This document shows, piece by piece, positions 3,194 through 17,468 of a stretch of DNA of 51,052 nt. The translations under genes and the position numbers were made by a program. Each line of letters starts with the position of its first letter. Position 1 is the first letter of the stretch. The stretch is from a virus, in the IMG/VR virus record IMGVR_UViG_3300013093_000066, positions 1-51,052 of that record; one strand, 5' to 3'. The notes below the pieces were generated by a model that ran no database searches, was not told the DNA's origin, and saw nothing but the letters and a program-made list of their open reading frames with translations.

Positions 3194-3833
3194 TATCATA
3201 GGTAATTATATTATTACAAAAAAATTAGAGTTAGACACGACAAAGATTCTTCAGAGCGTTAATATTCTTAATCATTATATTATGAATGATATGCCTATCT
3301 TTGTTAATGAACAGATCGATCTCTATAAAGATAAAAACATAGTTGATAATCCTAATCAACTATTATCGACACGCATGTATGATCATTATAATCTTTTCTT
3401 ATATAGTCTTGAGGGGTTTTACGAACTCTTTAAAGAAATTAGTGATATGTTTAATCAAATTAAACCAGATCGATCAGAGTATTATTATATACAAGCATGG
3501 TTTAATATATACAATAAAGGCGAGTATATTGATTGGCATAAACACTGGCCATCAGAATTTAAGGTATGGCACGGAGTTTATTGTGTAAATACAAATGGAT
3601 CTAAGACAACTTACAGATTATCATCTGGTGCAGAGTTAGATGTTCCATCGGAAGATAATCTTTTGTTTATGGGTCCAAGTGATAATGATGAACATAGAAC
3701 ATGGCCATGGACTGGTGACGAGCCAAGAGTAACTATTGCATTTGATATAGTTCCTAGATGGGCTATTCGTAATTTTAATGAGTCAAATTATTTCTTACCA
3801 AGAACACCTAATCATTGGATACCAATAATATGA
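3180..3833 (+). CDS. Putative 2OG-Fe(II) oxygenase
   Basis: This 217-residue protein has a C-terminal half typical of the double-stranded beta-helix oxygenases that use iron and 2-oxoglutarate: IDWHKHW as the likely first metal site, DEHRTWPW with the distal His, and EPRVTIAFDIV with an Arg that could hold 2-oxoglutarate. Such enzymes hydroxylate proteins, amino acids or small molecules. The first metal site reads HKH rather than the usual HxD/E, which leaves some doubt. A second start lies at 3186. The stop overlaps the next start as ATGA, coupling it to two halogenase homologues. A joint oxidative tailoring role is inferred from this context only. Confidence 0.6.
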   Translation: MRMYNIIGNYIITKKLELDTTKILQSVNILNHYIMNDMPIFVNEQIDLYKDKNIVDNPNQLLSTRMYDHYNLFLYSLEGFYELFKEISDMFNQIKPDRSEYYYIQAWFNIYNKGEYIDWHKHWPSEFKVWHGVYCVNTNGSKTTYRLSSGAELDVPSEDNLLFMGPSDNDEHRTWPWTGDEPRVTIAFDIVPRWAIRNFNESNYFLPRTPNHWIPII

Positions 3834-5011
3834 CAAAAATTGCAATTTTAGGTAAAGGAACTGCTGGAGCTTTATCAGTATCTCACTTCAGAAAATATAT
3901 GCCACATGCAGAGATAGATTGGTACTATGATCCTGATAAGCCTACCCAAGCTGTAGGAGAGGGTTCTGTAGTTCAATTCCCATCTAATCTTTTTAATAGT
4001 ATGAATTTTACATACTCCGATCTAAAAAAGATCGATGGTACTATGAAGACTGGAATTGAGAAACATAATTGGGGTAAAAAGTATCAAGTGTTTGATGACA
4101 CCTTTACACCTCCATTTATTGCATATCATTTTAATGCCTTAAAATTACAGAGTTATATCTTTGATTTTTATAAAGATAGCGTCAACCAAATTGAAAAGAA
4201 TGTAACTAATAAAGACATCGATGCAGACTATATCATTGATTGTTCTGGTAAACCTAACCTAGATACAGATACTTCATTTGAAAGATCTAAGTATATACCT
4301 GTAAACTCTGTGCATGTTACTCAATGTTATTGGGATAAACCAGATTTTCAGCACACTAAAGCTATAGCCATGAAGTATGGATGGGTGTTTGCTATACCAC
4401 TATTAAACAGATGTTCTATCGGTTACCTATATAATAGGGACATTAATACTCTTGAAGATATTAAAGAAGATGTACAATCTATATTCAAAGATTTAAATCT
4501 AACACCTAGTACTGATCATAATACGTTTGACTTCTCTAACTATTATAGAAAACAAAACTATATAGGAAATGTTGCATACAACGGGAACGCATCTTTCTTT
4601 CTTGAGCCTTTACAGGCACAGTCTATTGGAATGATGGACATGACAGTTAGATACGCGTATGACATTATAAACAGAAATGGTGATACAGATAAATTTAATA
4701 AGATGTATGAGTTTGACGTAGCAGCATCAGAGAACGTTATAATGATGCATTACTTTGCAGGCTCACGCTTTAATACTCCATTCTGGGACTTTGCTGAAGA
4801 GAGAGGTGCTAGATGTATGGAGAGAGCAGTTAAAGACCCTAAGTTTGTACAAGCATTTAAAGATGTATCAAAGTTTGATAGTCTTATAGATGTTACAGAC
4901 AATAAGTCTAATCTCGGTGGATATATATTTTGGGGACCTTTATTCTTTTATCAAAATGTTAAAGGCCTTGGTATAGAAGATAAGTTTCAAGTATTAATAG
5001 ACAAATCATGA
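3830..5011 (+). CDS. Flavin-dependent tryptophan-halogenase-like protein 1
   Basis: This 393-residue protein has the FAD-binding GxGxxG motif (GKGTAGA, residues 8-14), a Lys at 73 in the position of the catalytic Lys of PrnA, and GWVFAIP (184-190), a variant of the family's WxWxIP motif. It is much shorter than the ~510-540 residues of bacterial tryptophan halogenases. At the PLEST-G site, where PrnA has its key Glu and chloride-binding residues, this copy has PLQAQSIG (260-267), so Glu is replaced by Gln. Loss or change of halide chemistry is likely. It starts by ATGA overlap and overlaps copy 2 by 4 bases. Phage homologues of this family are known from cyanophages; substrates are unknown. 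Confidence 0.85.
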   Translation: MTKIAILGKGTAGALSVSHFRKYMPHAEIDWYYDPDKPTQAVGEGSVVQFPSNLFNSMNFTYSDLKKIDGTMKTGIEKHNWGKKYQVFDDTFTPPFIAYHFNALKLQSYIFDFYKDSVNQIEKNVTNKDIDADYIIDCSGKPNLDTDTSFERSKYIPVNSVHVTQCYWDKPDFQHTKAIAMKYGWVFAIPLLNRCSIGYLYNRDINTLEDIKEDVQSIFKDLNLTPSTDHNTFDFSNYYRKQNYIGNVAYNGNASFFLEPLQAQSIGMMDMTVRYAYDIINRNGDTDKFNKMYEFDVAASENVIMMHYFAGSRFNTPFWDFAEERGARCMERAVKDPKFVQAFKDVSKFDSLIDVTDNKSNLGGYIFWGPLFFYQNVKGLGIEDKFQVLIDKS

Positions 5012-6177
5012 AGAAGATAGCTATCATAGGTAAGGGTACTGCTGGAGCACAAGCAGCTGCACATTTTAATAGATGGATGCCTGAGTGCGAATTAGAATGG
5101 CACTTTGACTCTAGCATTCCTACACAAGCTGTTGGTGAAGGATCAGTACTAACAATACCTCATAACTTGTTTGAGTCATTAAACTTTTCTCATGAAGACT
5201 TAAAACATATAGATGGTACTTTTAAGACTGGAATTATGAAGTATAATTGGGGTGATAGTAACACTACATTTATGCACGACTTCTCTCCACCAAGTATAGG
5301 TTATCACTTTAACGCCCGTGCTCTACAAGAATATATCCTTAACTATCTTAAGGATAAAATAAAGATATTTGATCACAATATCTCTATTGATGATGTAGAT
5401 GCCGATTATATAATGGATTGTTCAGGTAAACCTAAATCTTATGAAGATTATAATCTGACAAGATACATACCTGTAAATTCTGTTCATGTAGTTCAATGCT
5501 GGTGGGATAATGTTACATTCCAACATACTAAAGCTATTGCTACAAAATATGGATGGGTGTTTGCAATACCTTTATTAAACAGATGTTCTATTGGTTACCT
5601 ATATAATAAAGATATCAATACTCTAGATGAAGTTAAAGAAGATGTGCAGGATATAATTAATCAGCTAGGCTTAACATCTAGCAATGATACTATTACATTC
5701 TCTTTTAAGAACTACTCTAGAAAGCAAAACTTTAAAGCTAATATAGCTTACAATGGAAATGCTTCTTTCTTTGTAGAACCATTAGAAGCTAATTCTCTAT
5801 GTATGATGGATGCTGTACAAAGATCTGCATTTGATATATGGAGTAACGGAGCATCAATCGATCAACAAAACAAGATATATTCTGATAAAGTAAGTCGTAT
5901 AGAAAATATTGTTATGATGCACTACTTTGCAGGATCTAAGTTTAAGACACCATTTTGGGAATTTGCCCAAGAGCGTGGAGTTAAATGTATGGAGAATGCA
6001 GACAGTGATTTTAGATATATGGCTATGCACTGCAATGATCTAGAAGGAGTCGGACAATACGTTAGTCCAAGACTTAATTTTGATATAAAGTCTTATTTCT
6101 TCTGGGGTTATCCAAGCTTCTATCAAAATGTAAATGGACTTGGTGTTAAAGATAAATTAAAAGAGATATGGATATAA
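5008..6177 (+). CDS. Flavin-dependent tryptophan-halogenase-like protein 2
   Basis: This 389-residue protein is a clear tandem paralogue of the preceding gene, with the same GKGTAGA, Lys73 and GWVFAIP (182-188). Here the active-site loop reads VEPLEANSL, keeping Glu at 260, but the Thr-Gly pair that binds chloride in PrnA is still missing. The pair could act as a heterodimer or on two substrates (inference). It overlaps the upstream copy by 4 bases and ends 44 bp before tRNA-Cys. Codon use is AT-rich like its partner. Confidence 0.85.
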   Translation: MKKIAIIGKGTAGAQAAAHFNRWMPECELEWHFDSSIPTQAVGEGSVLTIPHNLFESLNFSHEDLKHIDGTFKTGIMKYNWGDSNTTFMHDFSPPSIGYHFNARALQEYILNYLKDKIKIFDHNISIDDVDADYIMDCSGKPKSYEDYNLTRYIPVNSVHVVQCWWDNVTFQHTKAIATKYGWVFAIPLLNRCSIGYLYNKDINTLDEVKEDVQDIINQLGLTSSNDTITFSFKNYSRKQNFKANIAYNGNASFFVEPLEANSLCMMDAVQRSAFDIWSNGASIDQQNKIYSDKVSRIENIVMMHYFAGSKFKTPFWEFAQERGVKCMENADSDFRYMAMHCNDLEGVGQYVSPRLNFDIKSYFFWGYPSFYQNVNGLGVKDKLKEIWI

Positions 6178-13780: not shown

Positions 13781-13856
13781 GGTCGGTTAGCTCAGTTGGT
13801 AGAGCATCTCGTTTACACCGAGAATGTCGGCGGTTCGAGCCCGTCACCGACTACCA
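13781..13856 (+). tRNA. tRNA-Val (TAC)
   Basis: Acceptor GGTCGGT/ACCGACT, anticodon stem TCTCG/CGAGA with loop TTTACAC (TAC), T-loop TTCGAGC and encoded ACCA. Confidence 0.93.
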
Positions 13857-13860
13857 AGTT

Positions 13861-13994
13861 TTAGAGTGAGTTCAGCAACTAAACAACTCCGCTCACATGA
13901 TGGAAAAAAGTGTAACCTGTTGATTTTATTGAGAAAATACTAACTCATTGAAATATAACGATTTTTTTATAGAAAAAACTCAATGATTTCAAGG
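13861..13994 (+). repeat. Degenerate copies of the Ro-leader hairpin unit
   Basis: TTTAG and GTTCAGCAAC at 13860-13880 and AAAAAAGTGTAACCTGTTGA with TTTTA at 13904-13928 match the flanks of the three hairpin units upstream of the TROVE gene at 14.9 kb, but here the outer arms do not pair. A second segment has ATTGAG (13928-13933) with CTCAAT (13979-13984) crossed by TTGAAAT (13948-13954) with ATTTCAA (13986-13992), a possible pseudoknot. No ORF. It may be a worn copy of the same RNA element or a separate variant. Confidence 0.5.
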
Positions 13995-14005
13995 TCATAT
14001 TTCTG

Positions 14006-14034
14006 TTGACTTTATATCCGTTCTATCCTATTAT
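14006..14034 (+). promoter_or_regulatory. Strong sigma70-like promoter
   Basis: TTGACT (14006-14011), a 17-bp spacer and TATTAT (14029-14034), then AATATAAGGAATGGAG. This is the best match to a host consensus in the window. Only a six-codon frame starts right after it, so it may make a leader RNA or the genes at 14213 onward. Confidence 0.7.
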
Positions 14035-14155
14035 AATAATATAAGGAATGGAGATAATCGATGAACACTATTATTGTATGATGATCATGGACCAAGTTGA
14101 TATTCAAGCCCAGGACAAGTCTGGGGTATTCCGCCATAATTTGTGAAAATAGTTG

Positions 14156-14184
14156 TGTACATAATGTCAGAACCATGCTATATA
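14156..14184 (+). promoter_or_regulatory. Early-type promoter for the 14213-14886 genes
   Basis: TGTACA (14156-14161), a 17-bp spacer and TATATA (14179-14184), followed by GGAG 8 bases before the ATG at 14213. Confidence 0.72.
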
Positions 14185-14212
14185 TAAGAATATAAGCAAT
14201 GGAGATAAAGAT

Positions 14213-14419
14213 ATGTCCGACGCCGATATAATCAACGCGAGAATCAAGCTTCTCAAAAAAAGAGTCTCTCAGCTTTGGGTAAAGCATATACTACATCAGC
14301 GTTCTACCGCACTTGGCAAACCCAGTATTGGTGCTCTCACAGAAGCGGAGATTGATGAGGTCAAGGCTTATAGGGATGAGATCCCTGCCCTAGAGCAACT
14401 TCTCGCGAAGAAGGATTAA
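14213..14419 (+). CDS. Small helical protein of unknown function
   Basis: This 68-residue protein starts at an ATG after TGGAG, behind an early-type promoter. It is predicted to be mostly helical and charged (NARIKLLKKRVSQL, then EIDEVKAYRDEIPALEQLL). No domain is recognised. Early expression next to the tRNA region suggests a host take-over role, which is a guess. Confidence 0.65.
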   Translation: MSDADIINARIKLLKKRVSQLWVKHILHQRSTALGKPSIGALTEAEIDEVKAYRDEIPALEQLLAKKD

Positions 14420-14423
14420 TGAT

Positions 14424-14663
14424 ATGAAGCCGTTGATAGTTATTGGTGTAGTTGTTGTTGGTGTTGTGAGTCTCGCCGTTGCAGCTGGTATATATGATCA
14501 GAATCAATGGAATGATTTTTCCGCAGCTCACGATTGCAAGTTGGTTGGTCATAAGAACTCAACTGTTGGCTATGGTTTGACACCGTCTGGCAAAATGGGC
14601 ACGGTAATCCTTCCTGAAGAAAATTCATATCTTTGCAATGATGGTGTAACATATACCCGTTAA
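14424..14663 (+). CDS. Small membrane-anchored or exported protein
   Basis: This 79-residue protein has a hydrophobic N-terminus (about 3-22, PLIVIGVVVVGVVSLAVAAG) that could be a signal anchor, followed by a short domain with two Cys (38 and 71) that could form a disulphide in the periplasm. It lies 4 bases after the previous gene. The function is unknown. Confidence 0.65.
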   Translation: MKPLIVIGVVVVGVVSLAVAAGIYDQNQWNDFSAAHDCKLVGHKNSTVGYGLTPSGKMGTVILPEENSYLCNDGVTYTR

Positions 14664-14688
14664 TTATACAGGAAATGGAGATAAAGAT

Positions 14689-14886
14689 ATGAAAACACAA
14701 TATCGAATCTTTATGGTAGAATCAGAACGTGGTTGGGGTCAGAAGTACTGGCACTAAGATTACGATTCTTATGAAGAAGCAAAAGAGCGTATTCGTTCTA
14801 TCAATGCAGATAATACTGCACCAACCGCTCCTGATTGGTACATGCAAGCAGAAGATCGTGTTGAAGTAGTCGAAGTTAAAGTATAA
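14689..14886 (+). pseudogene. Small early gene interrupted by an in-frame TAA
   Basis: The ATG follows ATGGAGATAAAGAT, the same leader as its neighbours. After 22 codons ending GQKYWH there is TAA (14755-14757). The same frame then continues as DYDSYEEAKERIRSINADN to a second TAA at 14884, 65 codons in all, and still looks protein-like. A single base change (for example GAA or TAC to TAA) would explain this. Either the gene was lost recently, the stop is read through, or the base is a sequencing error. None of the tRNAs seen here has a TTA anticodon that would read UAA. Confidence 0.6.
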
Positions 14887-14894
14887 AAAGTTTT

Positions 14895-14946
14895 AGGGTC
14901 AGTTCAGCAACCAACCTGCTCGCACAGATAGCAAAAAGTTGACCCT
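14895..14946 (+). ncRNA. Ro-leader hairpin unit 1 (candidate Y-RNA-like element)
   Basis: Outer stem AGGGTCA/TGACCCT (14895-14901 with 14940-14946), internal strand GTTCAGCAACC, an inner TGCT/AGCA hairpin and AAAAAGT before the 3' arm. It is preceded by TTTT and followed by GTTGATTTT. The 3' arm context GTTGACC is reminiscent of the Ro-binding stem of Y RNAs, but this resemblance is from memory. Confidence 0.65.
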
Positions 14947-14955
14947 GTTGATTTT

Positions 14956-15016
14956 AGGATCTTTACAGCACAATTGCCGTAAGGCACTTTTTTATGGAAA
15001 AAGCAGAATAGATCCT
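14956..15016 (+). ncRNA. Ro-leader hairpin unit 2
   Basis: Outer stem AGGATCT/AGATCCT (14956-14962 with 15010-15016), internal TTACAGCAC, an inner TGCC-GTAA-GGCA hairpin and an A-rich stretch before the 3' arm, followed by GTCGATTT. The stem bases differ from unit 1 at paired positions, so pairing is kept by compensating changes. Confidence 0.65.
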
Positions 15017-15024
15017 GTCGATTT

Positions 15025-15079
15025 AGATTCAGTTCCGCAACCCTCAAAATTTGTATCGAAACAAACAAAAGTTGAATCT
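15025..15079 (+). ncRNA. Ro-leader hairpin unit 3
   Basis: Outer stem AGATTCA/TGAATCT (15025-15031 with 15073-15079), internal GTTCCGCAACC, an inner TTTGT/ACAAA hairpin and ACAAAAGT before the 3' arm. It ends 21 bases before the TROVE start codon, so it is part of that gene's leader. Confidence 0.65.
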
Positions 15080-15100
15080 GTAGTAAAATGGAGAAGTGAT

Positions 15101-16537
15101 ATGACTACATTTGCAAGCGCTGTTCAAAATCAGTCTGATAGAACTACAAATGGCATGAAGGCTCGTGCATCTACTGCTAACGCTCTTACTGACTTGTTCT
15201 TCAAGATTGGTGCTATGCGTGGGCAAAACGTAATTCCTGCTTTCACAGCAGCTCGTGTTCAAGATGCAGATATCGCTGGTCGTATTGCATTGTGGGCTCG
15301 TGACATCCGTGGTGGTGCTGGTGAGCGTAAGATCTTCCGTGACATCCTTTTGGATCTTGCTAAGACAGATCAGGATCGTGCACGTGCAATGATCATGAAG
15401 GTACCAGAACTTGGTCGTTGGGATGACTTGCTCGTTCTAGTTGATACTGAGTTAGAAGGCTTTGCTTTCTCATTCATCTATGCTGCTCTTATGCAGGGCA
15501 ATGGTCTTTGTGCAAAGTGGATGCCTCGTCAGGGTGAAGTAGCTGCAAAGCTTCGTAAGCACCTTGGTTGGACTCCTAAGTTCTATCGTAAGCGTCTGGT
15601 TGAATTGACACAAGTTGTTGAGACTCAGATGTGTGCAAAGGACTGGGATAACATTAACTTCAACCACGTTCCTTCTGTTGCTTCTTCACGTTATAAGAAG
15701 GCATTCTCACGTCACACTGAGAAGTATAAGGAATGGGCTGCAAAGCTTGTCTCTGATAAGCCTGAAGATCGTGCAGAGGTTAAGGTTAATGCTGGTGCAG
15801 TTTATCCTTACGATGTTATTAAAGGTGTTTGGCCTTCTGGTTATCGTAATAACTATGATCAGTCTAACATGAACCACATCTTGGCTCAGTGGGAAGCATT
15901 GCCTAACTATGTTGGTGATGCTAATATTCTTCCACTAGTTGACGTTTCAGGTTCTATGATATCTAAGGCAGGTGGCTATAACTCTAAGTCTTCTGTTACT
16001 TGCTTGGATGTATCTGTGTCTCTAGGTCTTTACCTTGCAGATAAGAACAAGGGTAAGTTCAAGGATACCTTCTTGACTTTCTCTGAAAAACCTAAGCTTC
16101 TTAATCTCACTGGTAATATCCTTGATAAGATGAAGCAGATGGTATCATCTGAATGGGAAATGAACACTAACCTTAATGCAGCTATTCAAAAGATCTTAGA
16201 TGTTGCTATTGAGAATAATGTTCCTCACGAAGAGATGCCAGCAGCTCTGTTGATTCTGTCTGACATGCAATTTGACCAATGCGCTTGTTTCGACGACTCA
16301 GCAATGCAGATGATTGCGCGTAAGTATGCAGAGGCCGGCTACACAATTCCTAACATTGTGTTTTGGAACCTAAATGCTCAAGACAATGTTCCTGTCAAGT
16401 ATGATGTGCGTGGTGCTGCTTTGGTATCTGGTTTCTCTCCAGCAATTGTTAAGTCAGTTCTGGCAGCAGATCTGGATAACTTTACACCAGAAGCTATTAT
16501 GCTCAAGACAATCATGTCTGAGCGTTATGACTACTAA
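15101..16537 (+). CDS. TROVE/vWA protein, DUF2828-like (Ro60/Rsr relative)
   Basis: This 478-residue protein has an N-terminal helical-repeat region with ARDIRGGAGERKIFRDIL (67-84), ELGRWDDLLVL and YRKRL, features shared by TROVE and DUF2828 proteins. The C-terminal von Willebrand A domain has a complete metal site: DVSGS (281-285), Thr356 and the SDMQFD strand (387-392). Ro60 and bacterial Rsr bind Y RNAs and the ends of misfolded or unprocessed RNAs. The start chosen is the ATG after TGGAGAAG; a longer frame would cover the three leader hairpins and reads as nonsense. Those hairpins suggest it binds its own leader or partner RNA. Codons are unusually GCT/CGT/TCT rich, suggesting high expression. 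Confidence 0.88.
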   Translation: MTTFASAVQNQSDRTTNGMKARASTANALTDLFFKIGAMRGQNVIPAFTAARVQDADIAGRIALWARDIRGGAGERKIFRDILLDLAKTDQDRARAMIMKVPELGRWDDLLVLVDTELEGFAFSFIYAALMQGNGLCAKWMPRQGEVAAKLRKHLGWTPKFYRKRLVELTQVVETQMCAKDWDNINFNHVPSVASSRYKKAFSRHTEKYKEWAAKLVSDKPEDRAEVKVNAGAVYPYDVIKGVWPSGYRNNYDQSNMNHILAQWEALPNYVGDANILPLVDVSGSMISKAGGYNSKSSVTCLDVSVSLGLYLADKNKGKFKDTFLTFSEKPKLLNLTGNILDKMKQMVSSEWEMNTNLNAAIQKILDVAIENNVPHEEMPAALLILSDMQFDQCACFDDSAMQMIARKYAEAGYTIPNIVFWNLNAQDNVPVKYDVRGAALVSGFSPAIVKSVLAADLDNFTPEAIMLKTIMSERYDY

Positions 16538-16847: not shown

Positions 16848-17468
16848 ATGAAATATCTCATATATAAAATCACCAATTTAGTCAATAGAAAATACTATAT
16901 TGGAAAACATCAGACTAAAGACTTAAATGATGGATATATGGGTTCTGGTAAACTCTTAAAAATAGCTATCAAGAAGTATGGGATTGAGAACTTCAAAAAA
17001 GAAATACTTCATATCTTTGATAATGAAGAAGATATGAATAATGCAGAAAAAGAACTAGTCGTCATTTCTGAAGAAACGTATAATCTTTGTGAAGGAGGTC
17101 GAGGAGGATTTAGCTATATAAATCGTACCAGAAACCATCATGAACATAATCAAAAAATAGCTGACAAGCGTGACTATTCAAAAACAGATACTTCTTACGT
17201 CACAACAGAATGGATAGAAGAGAAAAGAGTTTCAGCAAAACAACATTGGAAAAACGGTACATATACTTTCATTCCAGATACAACTGGTATGAAACATACT
17301 GATGATGTAAAAAAGAGAATGAGTGAAGCACATTCTGGAAGTAAAAATTCTCAATATGGAACGTGTTGGGTTACAGACGGTTCAAATTCCAAAAAGATAA
17401 AGAACGAAGAATTAAAAGAATATCTAGACAATGGGTTTGTTAAAGGCAGACGTATTAAGCGACCGTAG
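16848..17468 (+). CDS. GIY-YIG homing endonuclease (Seg-like)
   Basis: This 206-residue protein starts with a GIY-YIG domain (LIYKITN and YYIGKHQ, followed by GYMGSGKLL and the catalytic-Glu region AEKELV near 66-71). A C-terminal DNA-binding part has HTDDVKKRMSEAHSG, a NUMOD3-like repeat, and CWVTDG. Such enzymes spread by cutting a related phage genome near the insertion site. No good ribosome-binding site lies outside the leader hairpin. The gene ends 10 bases inside tRNA-Leu(GAG), so a neighbouring tRNA may be its target. Confidence 0.9.
   Translation: MKYLIYKITNLVNRKYYIGKHQTKDLNDGYMGSGKLLKIAIKKYGIENFKKEILHIFDNEEDMNNAEKELVVISEETYNLCEGGRGGFSYINRTRNHHEHNQKIADKRDYSKTDTSYVTTEWIEEKRVSAKQHWKNGTYTFIPDTTGMKHTDDVKKRMSEAHSGSKNSQYGTCWVTDGSNSKKIKNEELKEYLDNGFVKGRRIKRP

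What the first reader, a model, noticed from the sequence alone, without database searches (positions are those of the whole stretch)
14895..16537. Ro60/Rsr-like TROVE gene led by three tandem covarying hairpins: a candidate phage Ro-RNA system
Directly before the vWA/TROVE (DUF2828-like) gene are three ~52-61-nt units with the same plan: TTTAG, a 7-bp outer stem, an internal GTTCAGCAACC-like strand (weaker in unit 2), a small inner hairpin, an A-rich strand, and CTGT after the stem. The outer stems differ (AGGGTCA/TGACCCT, AGGATCT/AGATCCT, AGATTCA/TGAATCT), yet each pairs perfectly. This is compensating change within one sequence and indicates that the stems are selected. Ro60 and bacterial Rsr bind Y RNAs and aberrant or unprocessed RNAs. 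A phage with 30 tRNAs and such a protein could run its own tRNA quality control or repair. The units may be Y-like partners, decoys or an autoregulatory leader.
Basis: partly seen in the sequence, partly recalled or inferred. Interest (0 to 1): 0.93.

Follow-up and report, generated by a model that had tools for sequence, protein, structure and literature searches.

The report
Phage Ro-linked RNAs carrying tRNA pieces
The three hairpins belong to a large set of phage RNAs that travel with a Ro60-like protein gene: each has the same clamp-like stem and motif but a different load, often an imitation of part of a tRNA, which makes it possible to ask in the laboratory what Ro proteins and their RNAs do for viruses.

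Summary
The three hairpins (14891-15084) are members of a phage RNA family. In 80 related viral loci, 230 such units lie within 1.3 kb upstream of the Ro-like gene, against 1 on the opposite strand. They share a handle: 7-bp covarying stem beginning AG, a CAGCA strand, and a CUGU end. The load between varies: anticodon-arm hairpins, tRNA bodies, circularly permuted tRNA bodies built like the tRNA-mimic domain of bacterial Y RNA (YrlA), or long unknown domains. Units also sit 5-6 nt behind tRNA genes and, in some phages, far from the Ro-like gene. A covariance model finds units in 14 of 18 phage records with the gene and 0 of 8 without. The protein model matches Ro60/Rsr/TROVE structures over nearly its whole length. 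Best reading: a phage Ro-RNP system with modular, Y-RNA-like, tRNA-mimicking RNAs. Binding and function (decoy, tether, autoregulation) are inferred. The window's own units do not match YrlA; sister units do, below Rfam's threshold. The handle also resembles Dictyostelium Class I RNAs, again below threshold.

The parts
14891..14951 (+). Unit 1: handle stem 14895-14901/14940-14946, motif GTTCAGCAACC, short load, tail GTTGA
   Evidence: model R1 52.5 bits
14952..15021 (+). Unit 2: handle stem 14956-14962/15010-15016, motif TTACAGCA; its load ends in a hairpin 14987-15003 with 5 bp and a 7-nt loop with U at position 2 and G at position 6, like an anticodon arm (loop bases AUG)
   Evidence: same unit in L003, 4856; model R1 34.2 bits
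15021..15084 (+). Unit 3, the last unit: handle stem 15025-15031/15073-15079, motif GTTCCGCAACC; GGAG follows at 15090 and the ATG at 15101. In some sister phages the load of this unit is a Ser(UGA)-type anticodon arm (loop CTTGAAA; 4 by the strict test)
   Evidence: model R1 57.3 bits
13859..13923 (+). Unit A, whose stem strand 13863-13869 begins 6 nt behind tRNA-Val; 5' strand AGAGTGA kept, 3' strand changed (GTAACCT), so the stem is broken; in L003/L004 the same place holds an intact unit (AGAGTGA/TCACTCT) with a permuted tRNA body
   Evidence: model R1 26.7 bits
15101..16537 (+). Ro/TROVE-type protein, 478 aa, DUF2828 + DUF7788 (vWA with DVSGSM), PHROG 850 'RNA-binding protein'
13781..13856 (+). 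tRNA-Val(TAC), the tRNA gene directly before unit A

Best explanation
The hairpins are three members of a phage family of small structured RNAs that work with the Ro/TROVE-type protein encoded just behind them. Each RNA has a constant handle (7-bp stem with changing sequence, unpaired CAGCA strand, AG start and CUG end) and an exchangeable load. Shown by sequence: the handle, its covariation, its presence with the Ro-like gene, its placement in tRNA clusters as well as before the gene, and loads that imitate tRNA parts (anticodon arm, whole tRNA, or T arm-closed acceptor-D arm in permuted order as in YrlA). Inferred: the handle is the binding site of the Ro-like protein; the loads occupy or recruit enzymes that act on tRNAs. 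I think it most likely that the phage uses these RNPs as tRNA mimics that compete for, or tether, host tRNA-cutting or tRNA-processing enzymes during infection. I also infer that binding of the protein to the last unit, next to the ribosome-binding site, damps its own translation.
For: 230 units against 1 on the minus strand in 80 loci (some loci are near-identical; 174 distinct units). Pairing test without selection for pairing, 313/365 against at most 210; covariation 0.771 against 0.162. Model R1 hits (E <= 0.05) in 14 of 18 records with the Ro-like domain and 0 of 8 without; leaving out the 5 records that gave training units, 9 of 13 against 0 of 8, p = 0.0024. Vibrio phage D479, picked as a control, proved to have the gene and gave the only hit of that set. 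Units lie at a distance: about 50 kb from the gene in phage OC, 150 kb or more in the circular record of Erwinia phage pEa_SNUABM_50, within 250 nt behind the gene in two mycobacteriophages. 56 of 209 distinct units start 4-11 nt after a tRNA gene, 43 of them 5-6 nt. T arms in 44 of 138 long loads, 0 in 10 shuffles. T arm-closed acceptor-D arm in 25 of those 44, control mean 1.3. Anticodon-like arms in 35 of 92 short units, control mean 1.25. YrlA model hits of 34-46 bits on nine RNAs of permuted order. Protein model: TROVE 9kop Z 16.6, phage phiLo Ro60 9l5y Z 15.2, Rsr 2nvo Z 13.3, vertebrate Ro60 Z 11.2-12.6; best match outside that family Z 10.6, vWA part only.
Against: No transcript or binding data. 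Four of 18 records with the gene gave no hit (phiM19, CP39, vB_BcoS-136, vB_MscM-PMS2), and the hits in EF5 and AvadaKedavra are weak (E 5e-4 and 1e-3). The records were picked by me, not at random. The YrlA outer stem is not matched well and all YrlA hits are below the gathering score; other permuted units in the same loci were not hit (for example L005 533, L009 4174, L086 8374). Pairs of ordinary tandem tRNAs can score 20-32 bits with YrlA (L005, L106, L139). A strict last unit was found in 55 of 75 loci, not all. Loads are related by descent, so counts are not independent. No cargo anticodon matched the tRNA in front of its unit (0 of 20), so no simple pairing rule supports the decoy reading.
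Confidence: 0.68

Rival explanations
1. Cis-only leader: the stems serve only to regulate translation or stability of the Ro-like mRNA.
For: The last unit sits directly before the ribosome-binding site in at least 55 of 75 loci.
Against: Many units stand alone behind tRNA genes, tens of kilobases or more from the gene, or behind the gene; many loads are tRNA mimics.
Confidence: 0.12
2. Decaying or permuted tRNA genes: the units are tRNA relics or functional circularly permuted tRNAs, and the handle is a processing signal.
For: T, D and acceptor elements; loads above Rfam's tRNA cut-off in L016 and L018 and L017; 20 of 138 doubled loads called by ARAGORN; two permuted units keep a CCA (L015, L024).
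Against: The handle is kept on loads with no tRNA body; most closed acceptors have loops of 3-8 nt; the permuted order is the one of YrlA; the 8 records without the Ro-like gene carry tRNA genes but gave no R1 hit.
Confidence: 0.08
3. DNA-level cassette ends (integron attC-like), where the stem folds in single-stranded DNA and helps exchange of cassettes.
For: Modular loads, a recombined-looking unit (window unit A) and genes inserted between units or between unit and gene (window 14.0-14.9 kb, L024).
Against: None of the 20 window ORFs scanned matched an integrase (not all ORFs were scanned); the unit sits at a set place before the ribosome-binding site and 5-6 nt behind tRNAs; link to an RNA-binding protein family.
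Confidence: 0.05
4. Toxin-antitoxin of type III (ToxIN-like): tandem RNA repeats ahead of a protein gene act as RNA antitoxin.
For: Tandem structured repeats directly before a protein gene.
Against: The protein has a Ro/TROVE fold with a vWA domain, not a ToxN-type nuclease (ToxN fold recalled, not tested); repeats differ in load and also occur far from the gene.
Confidence: 0.03

Closest known systems
Bacterial Y RNA YrlA (Rfam RF02553) with Rsr/Ro60
   Same: Stem handle plus tRNA-mimic domain in the order T arm, closed acceptor hairpin, D arm; lies near a Ro-type gene; sister units score up to 46 bits.
   Different: Different handle (7-bp stem + CAGCA, AG...CUGU); up to 7 units within 1 kb of the gene; many loads, including those of the three window units, are not the YrlA domain; below Rfam's gathering score of 69.
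Dictyostelium Class I RNAs (Rfam RF01414; PMC7919456)
   Same: About 60 nt, AG...CUGU ends, short stem with compensatory changes, CUUACAGCAA next to the 5' stem strand, variable rest. The six R1 units lying wholly in a 961-nt leader stretch of Aeromonas phage LAh_6 are all hit, as 6 of the 12 matches listed among 4227 families.
   Different: Scores 19-30 bits against a gathering score of 41.5; the first A of the amoebal AAG start is mostly T here; no hit in the window nor, up to E 10, in the 8 loci that are not from LAh_6; no Ro-type partner is known to me in Dictyostelium; eukaryotic promoter.
Phage Ro60/TROVE proteins (phiLo 9l5y, TROVE domain 9kop, PHROG 850, mycobacteriophage 'Ro-like')
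   Same: Same fold over nearly the full length; PHROG 850 E 3e-134; 682 phage records carry a relative.
   Different: Sequence belongs to the DUF2828/DUF7788 branch; no Ro-partner RNA is annotated in the 10 gene neighbourhoods read.
Phage stable RNAs of T4 (species 1, 2) and T5
   Same: Stable RNAs of unknown function in tRNA clusters (annotation).
   Different: No R1 match in T4 or T5 and no Ro-like domain there.

Membership tests
Ro60/TROVE-type proteins | HEAT-ring plus vWA fold | tested here: met
   AlphaFold2 model pLDDT 74.4; 9kop Z 16.6, 5.1 A over 402; 2nvo Z 13.3; 2i91 Z 12.1
Ro60/TROVE-type proteins | vWA MIDAS motif DxSxS | tested here: met
   D281, S283, S285 invariant in 40 aligned proteins
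Ro60/TROVE-type proteins | Detectable sequence match to a TROVE profile or solved Ro chain | tested here: not met
   Pfam reports only DUF7788 and DUF2828 at E <= 0.001; no PDB sequence hit
Bacterial Y RNA (YrlA) | tRNA-like domain of T arm, closed acceptor, D arm | tested here: not met
   Not in the window's three units (13850-15120, no YrlA hit up to E 10); met in sister units
Bacterial Y RNA (YrlA) | Score above Rfam gathering threshold (69 bits) | tested here: not met
   Best sister unit 46 bits
Bacterial Y RNA (YrlA) | Gene neighbourhood with a Ro-type protein | tested here: met
   not in every phage (OC, Erwinia phage, phiAS5 units lie apart)
Bacterial Y RNA (YrlA) | Binding of the stem by the Ro protein | not testable with these tools
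   Needs pull-down or gel shift
Dictyostelium Class I RNAs | Covarying 5'/3' stem, CUGU end, CAGCAA motif beside the 5' strand, 42-65 nt | tested here: met
   Composition of 225 units, alignment A2; feature list from PMC7919456, sections 10, 11, first part of 16 and passages. Met by the short units; the window's unit 2 has CAGCAC and unit 3 CCGCAA
Dictyostelium Class I RNAs | Score above Rfam gathering threshold (41.5 bits) | tested here: not met
   Best 30.5 bits (L038); none in the window

The most novel reading that the evidence does not exclude
Phage handle RNAs and the Class I RNAs of social amoebae, reported as found only in dictyostelids and of unknown function, are one ancient kind of RNA: a Ro/TROVE-bound handle with exchangeable load. 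Phages stock it with tRNA pieces that shield their tRNAs from host anticodon nucleases; amoebae use the same handle with other loads.
Probability: 0.25. Interest if true: 0.95.

Novelty: new variant of a known kind. Interest (0 to 1): 0.87.

Why it matters
What Ro proteins and Y RNAs do is a long-open question. Here is a system with many natural variants of one RNA handle, kept with a Ro-type gene in phages of proteobacteria, a cyanobacterium, Listeria and mycobacteria, including phages of E. coli K-12 and M. smegmatis relatives that can be studied at once. The loads name testable targets: specific anticodon arms and tRNA top halves. It suggests that many RNA genes lie unannotated in phage tRNA clusters, and offers a hypothesis for Dictyostelium Class I RNAs.

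Tried and rejected
Rfam at gathering score finds only tRNAs in the window and in 12 related loci. The single-sequence fold energies are not significant. Loose motif counts inside the window do not exceed chance: 22 against 19.6 and 13 against 12.2 expected, and my first, looser unit finder gave 9 hits on the plus strand, 5 on the minus strand and 3-9 in six shuffles; it was tightened. A pseudoknot between CAGC and the GUUG tail was considered by eye and not pursued: no linker between stem and tail, and unit 3 breaks it. A further unit at 13967-14009 gave only E 1.6 and is not claimed. The AGGATCG class of long loads (10 sequences) gave only the outer stem in a consensus fold, without covariation. 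T4 and T5 stable RNAs as members: no R1 match; the finder's few low-scoring hits there lie on the strand opposite the tRNA genes. Matching of a cargo anticodon to the preceding tRNA: 0 of 20. Profile and single-sequence searches against PDB sequences gave nothing. In one search, 2-3 of the 25 D arms are loose matches. A few 'units' in coding regions or across a tRNA gene (L045 7856, L076 5099, L058 8874, L019 10361) are finder errors that were left in the counts they entered.

Papers: passages of PMC7790460, PMC8394870, PMC7824862, PMC7765460, PMC9569102, PMC8190616; sections 10, 11 and the first part of 16, and passages, of PMC7919456; listings only for the rest. Not held: PMC4201824, PMC6281776, PMC6047535, so the original YrlA papers were not read. 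That nothing in print describes this phage family rests alone; phage YrlA is mentioned in print (PMC7765460; one prophage YrlA in PMC8190616).

Full report
WHAT IS THERE. Three perfect 7-bp stems with different sequences stand in a row before a 478-aa gene. Each is preceded by T-rich sequence, starts AG, carries C(A/C)GCA 3 nt after the 5' strand, and is followed by GT. Folding energy alone says little (33, 9 and 136 of 200 shuffles fold as well), and loose motif counts within the window are at chance level. Rfam at its thresholds knows nothing here but tRNAs, and at E up to 10 gives three chance-like hits in 13850-15120, none on the units.

COMPARISON. A search of IMG/VR with the protein gave 217 relatives, of which the best 80 loci were kept (62-99% identity). 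A finder asking for a 7-bp stem, the CAGCA strand and a CTG/CCG end found 230 units within 1300 nt upstream of the gene in these 80 loci and 1 on the minus strand of the same stretches (174 distinct units within 1500 nt at the higher score). Since that finder asks for pairing, I repeated the test with sequence anchors only: 73 units, 313 of 365 variable positions paired by Watson-Crick rules, against a mean of 181 and a maximum of 210 for shuffled partners. In a 53-unit alignment from the window, IMG/VR loci and five named phages, five of seven pairs show two-sided changes and the covariation score is 0.771 against 0.162; the bare numbers of such pairs and of pair types do not differ from shuffles. 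Of 52 leaders with several units, 49 have all stems different. The last unit is met by a strict test within 100 nt of the start codon in 55 of 75 loci (control 0.02); several misses have GGG...CCCG ends, a changed CAGCA, or a bare hairpin.

THE LOADS. Between the constant ends the RNA varies from about 28 to about 260 nt. (a) Short loads: 48 of 92 contain a 5-bp hairpin with a 7-nt loop (5.6 in shuffles), and 35 of 92 have U at loop position 2 and a purine at position 6 as in anticodon arms (mean 1.25 in shuffles). Loop bases read Thr UGU, Ser UGA, Pro UGG, Lys UUU and others. In four sister phages the last unit carries CTTGAAA, the Ser(UGA) form, on a 5-bp stem, and in a few more on a shorter stem; the window's unit 3 has a near form and unit 2 an anticodon-like arm. 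(b) Ordinary tRNA bodies: loads in L016 (4733-4805), L018 (1475-1546) and L017 (1233-1305) pass Rfam's tRNA cut-off. (c) Permuted bodies: 44 of 138 long loads hold a strict T arm (0 in ten shuffles). In 25 of the 44 it is followed by an acceptor stem closed by a loop and then a D arm (control mean 1.3). ARAGORN of 138 units as they stand, 20 of 138 loads when doubled, 0 of 138 doubled shuffles. This is the order of the YrlA consensus (alignment). In the 21 loci scanned for it, the Rfam YrlA model hits nine RNAs of this order with 34-46 bits and two with 29 bits, all below its threshold of 69. Three weaker YrlA hits (20-32 bits) lie across ordinary tandem tRNAs (L005, L106, L139), so only the stronger ones count; other permuted units, such as that of phage wV8, were not hit. 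(d) Long loads without known relatives.

WHERE THE UNITS LIE. 56 of 209 distinct units start 4-11 nt behind a tRNA gene, 43 of them 5-6 nt (sequences). Named phages with units include KVP40, wV8, KP2025, BUCT-ZZ01 and Listeria LMSP-25, then LAh_6, phiAS5, OC, the Erwinia phage and others by covariance model. In OC the units lie about 50 kb from the gene, in phiAS5 about 11 kb, in the circular Erwinia record 150 kb or more. In the mycobacteriophages Moostard and AvadaKedavra an anticodon-arm unit and a YrlA-like RNA lie side by side within 250 nt behind the 'Ro-like' gene; in AvadaKedavra the YrlA-like RNA visibly carries the same kind of handle.

LINK TO THE PROTEIN. Model R1 was run on whole named records and the Ro-like domain PF25043 on the same records. 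Records with the domain: 14 of 18 have an R1 hit at E <= 0.05 (13 of 18 at 0.001). Records without: 0 of 8. Five of the 18 had given units to the model; without them 9 of 13 against 0 of 8, p = 0.0024. The records were chosen by me, not at random. The 12 IMG/VR records searched all have hits but were found through the gene, and many had given training units.

THE PROTEIN. Pfam DUF7788 and DUF2828, PHROG 850. An AlphaFold2 model from 40 relatives (pLDDT 74.4) matches, over nearly the whole chain, the TROVE domain 9kop (Z 16.6), the Ro60 of Thermus phage phiLo 9l5y (Z 15.2), Rsr 2nvo (Z 13.3) and vertebrate Ro60 (Z 11.2-12.6), above vWA-only matches (Z 10.6 at most). The MIDAS residues are invariant. 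Phages with the gene can have RNA ligase genes close by: 'tRNA-splicing ligase' 1.3 kb behind it in Listeria LMSP-25, 'putative RNA ligase' one small ORF before it in the Erwinia phage, which recalls the bacterial rsr-yrlBA-rtcBA operon (PMC7790460, passages). This was seen in 2 of the 10 neighbourhoods read.

MECHANISM. Shown: constant handle, exchangeable tRNA-like loads, linkage to a Ro-type gene. Inferred: the handle is what the protein holds, as Rsr is held by the basal stem of YrlA (PMC8394870, passages). The load then meets tRNA-acting enzymes. [quoted passage not shown] An array of anticodon arms and tRNA bodies in a phage would suit that purpose, but no data here test it (my weight about 0.35). 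Tethering of a nuclease such as PNPase to structured RNA is the other main reading (about 0.25). The last unit most likely serves autoregulation as well (about 0.5).

KNOWN OR NEW. YrlA in phages is mentioned in print (PMC7765460), and a Ro/TROVE protein with a tRNA-like partner is discussed in a survey of jumbo phages (PMC7824862). I found no report of the handle family, its anticodon-arm members or its arrays in the searches listed in Tried and rejected. The handle closely resembles Dictyostelium Class I RNAs: start AAG, end CUGU, covarying stem, about 60 nt, conserved 11-nt motif (PMC7919456); the phage units keep AG...CUGU but mostly have T before the AG. In a 961-nt leader stretch of phage LAh_6 all six R1 units lying wholly inside are hit by that model, six of twelve hits among 4227 families (E 0.0027 to 1.2). 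Outside LAh_6 I saw such hits on units of L038 (30.5 bits) and L011 (25.4 bits), none up to E 10 in the eight other loci and none in the window. It stays below threshold and could be convergence. It is a lead, not a membership.

Noticed in passing
L138 1480-2440 (Aeromonas phage LAh_6): Six handle units are hit by the Rfam model of Dictyostelium Class I RNA, a family reported as restricted to social amoebae.
   Followed up: partly
window 13859-14890: Unit A has a broken stem that looks like a fusion of two units, and about 1 kb with small ORFs separates it from unit 1; sister loci L003/L004 have an intact unit there and no insert. Units may be recombination hot spots.
   Followed up: partly
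L028, L035, L037, L039 leaders; L058, L062, L064, L073, L074 leaders: Long loads of unknown kind with recurring strings: CCGATATACTGGGGAT in the first group, and a hairpin like GAGTTTCGA..TTCTC followed by AAACAAAAAG.AGAAA or similar in the second.
   Followed up: partly
L015 375-586, L024 4131-4331, L052 1414-1634: Permuted tRNA bodies whose acceptor arm is extended by a long structured insert; those in L015 and L024 keep a CCA at the acceptor end.
   Followed up: no
L047, L049, L052, L054, L064-L066 just before the Ro-like gene: Bare AGG...CCTG hairpins without the CAGCA strand in the place of the last unit.
   Followed up: no
L089 10850-12061; L091 6320-7579: RNA ligase genes near the Ro-like gene (tRNA-splicing ligase in Listeria phage LMSP-25; putative RNA ligase in an Erwinia phage).
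   Followed up: no
window 3815-5008 and 5008-6174: Two adjacent tryptophan-halogenase-like genes within the phage tRNA cluster (PHROG 2928, E 8e-74 and 9e-66).
   Followed up: no
window 16848-17465: Homing-endonuclease-like gene between tRNA genes (PHROG 314, E 2.5e-40).
   Followed up: no
PDB 9kop, 9l5y: Recently released structures of a TROVE domain and of the Ro60 of Thermus phage phiLo; the one paper search made for them listed none that fits.
   Followed up: partly
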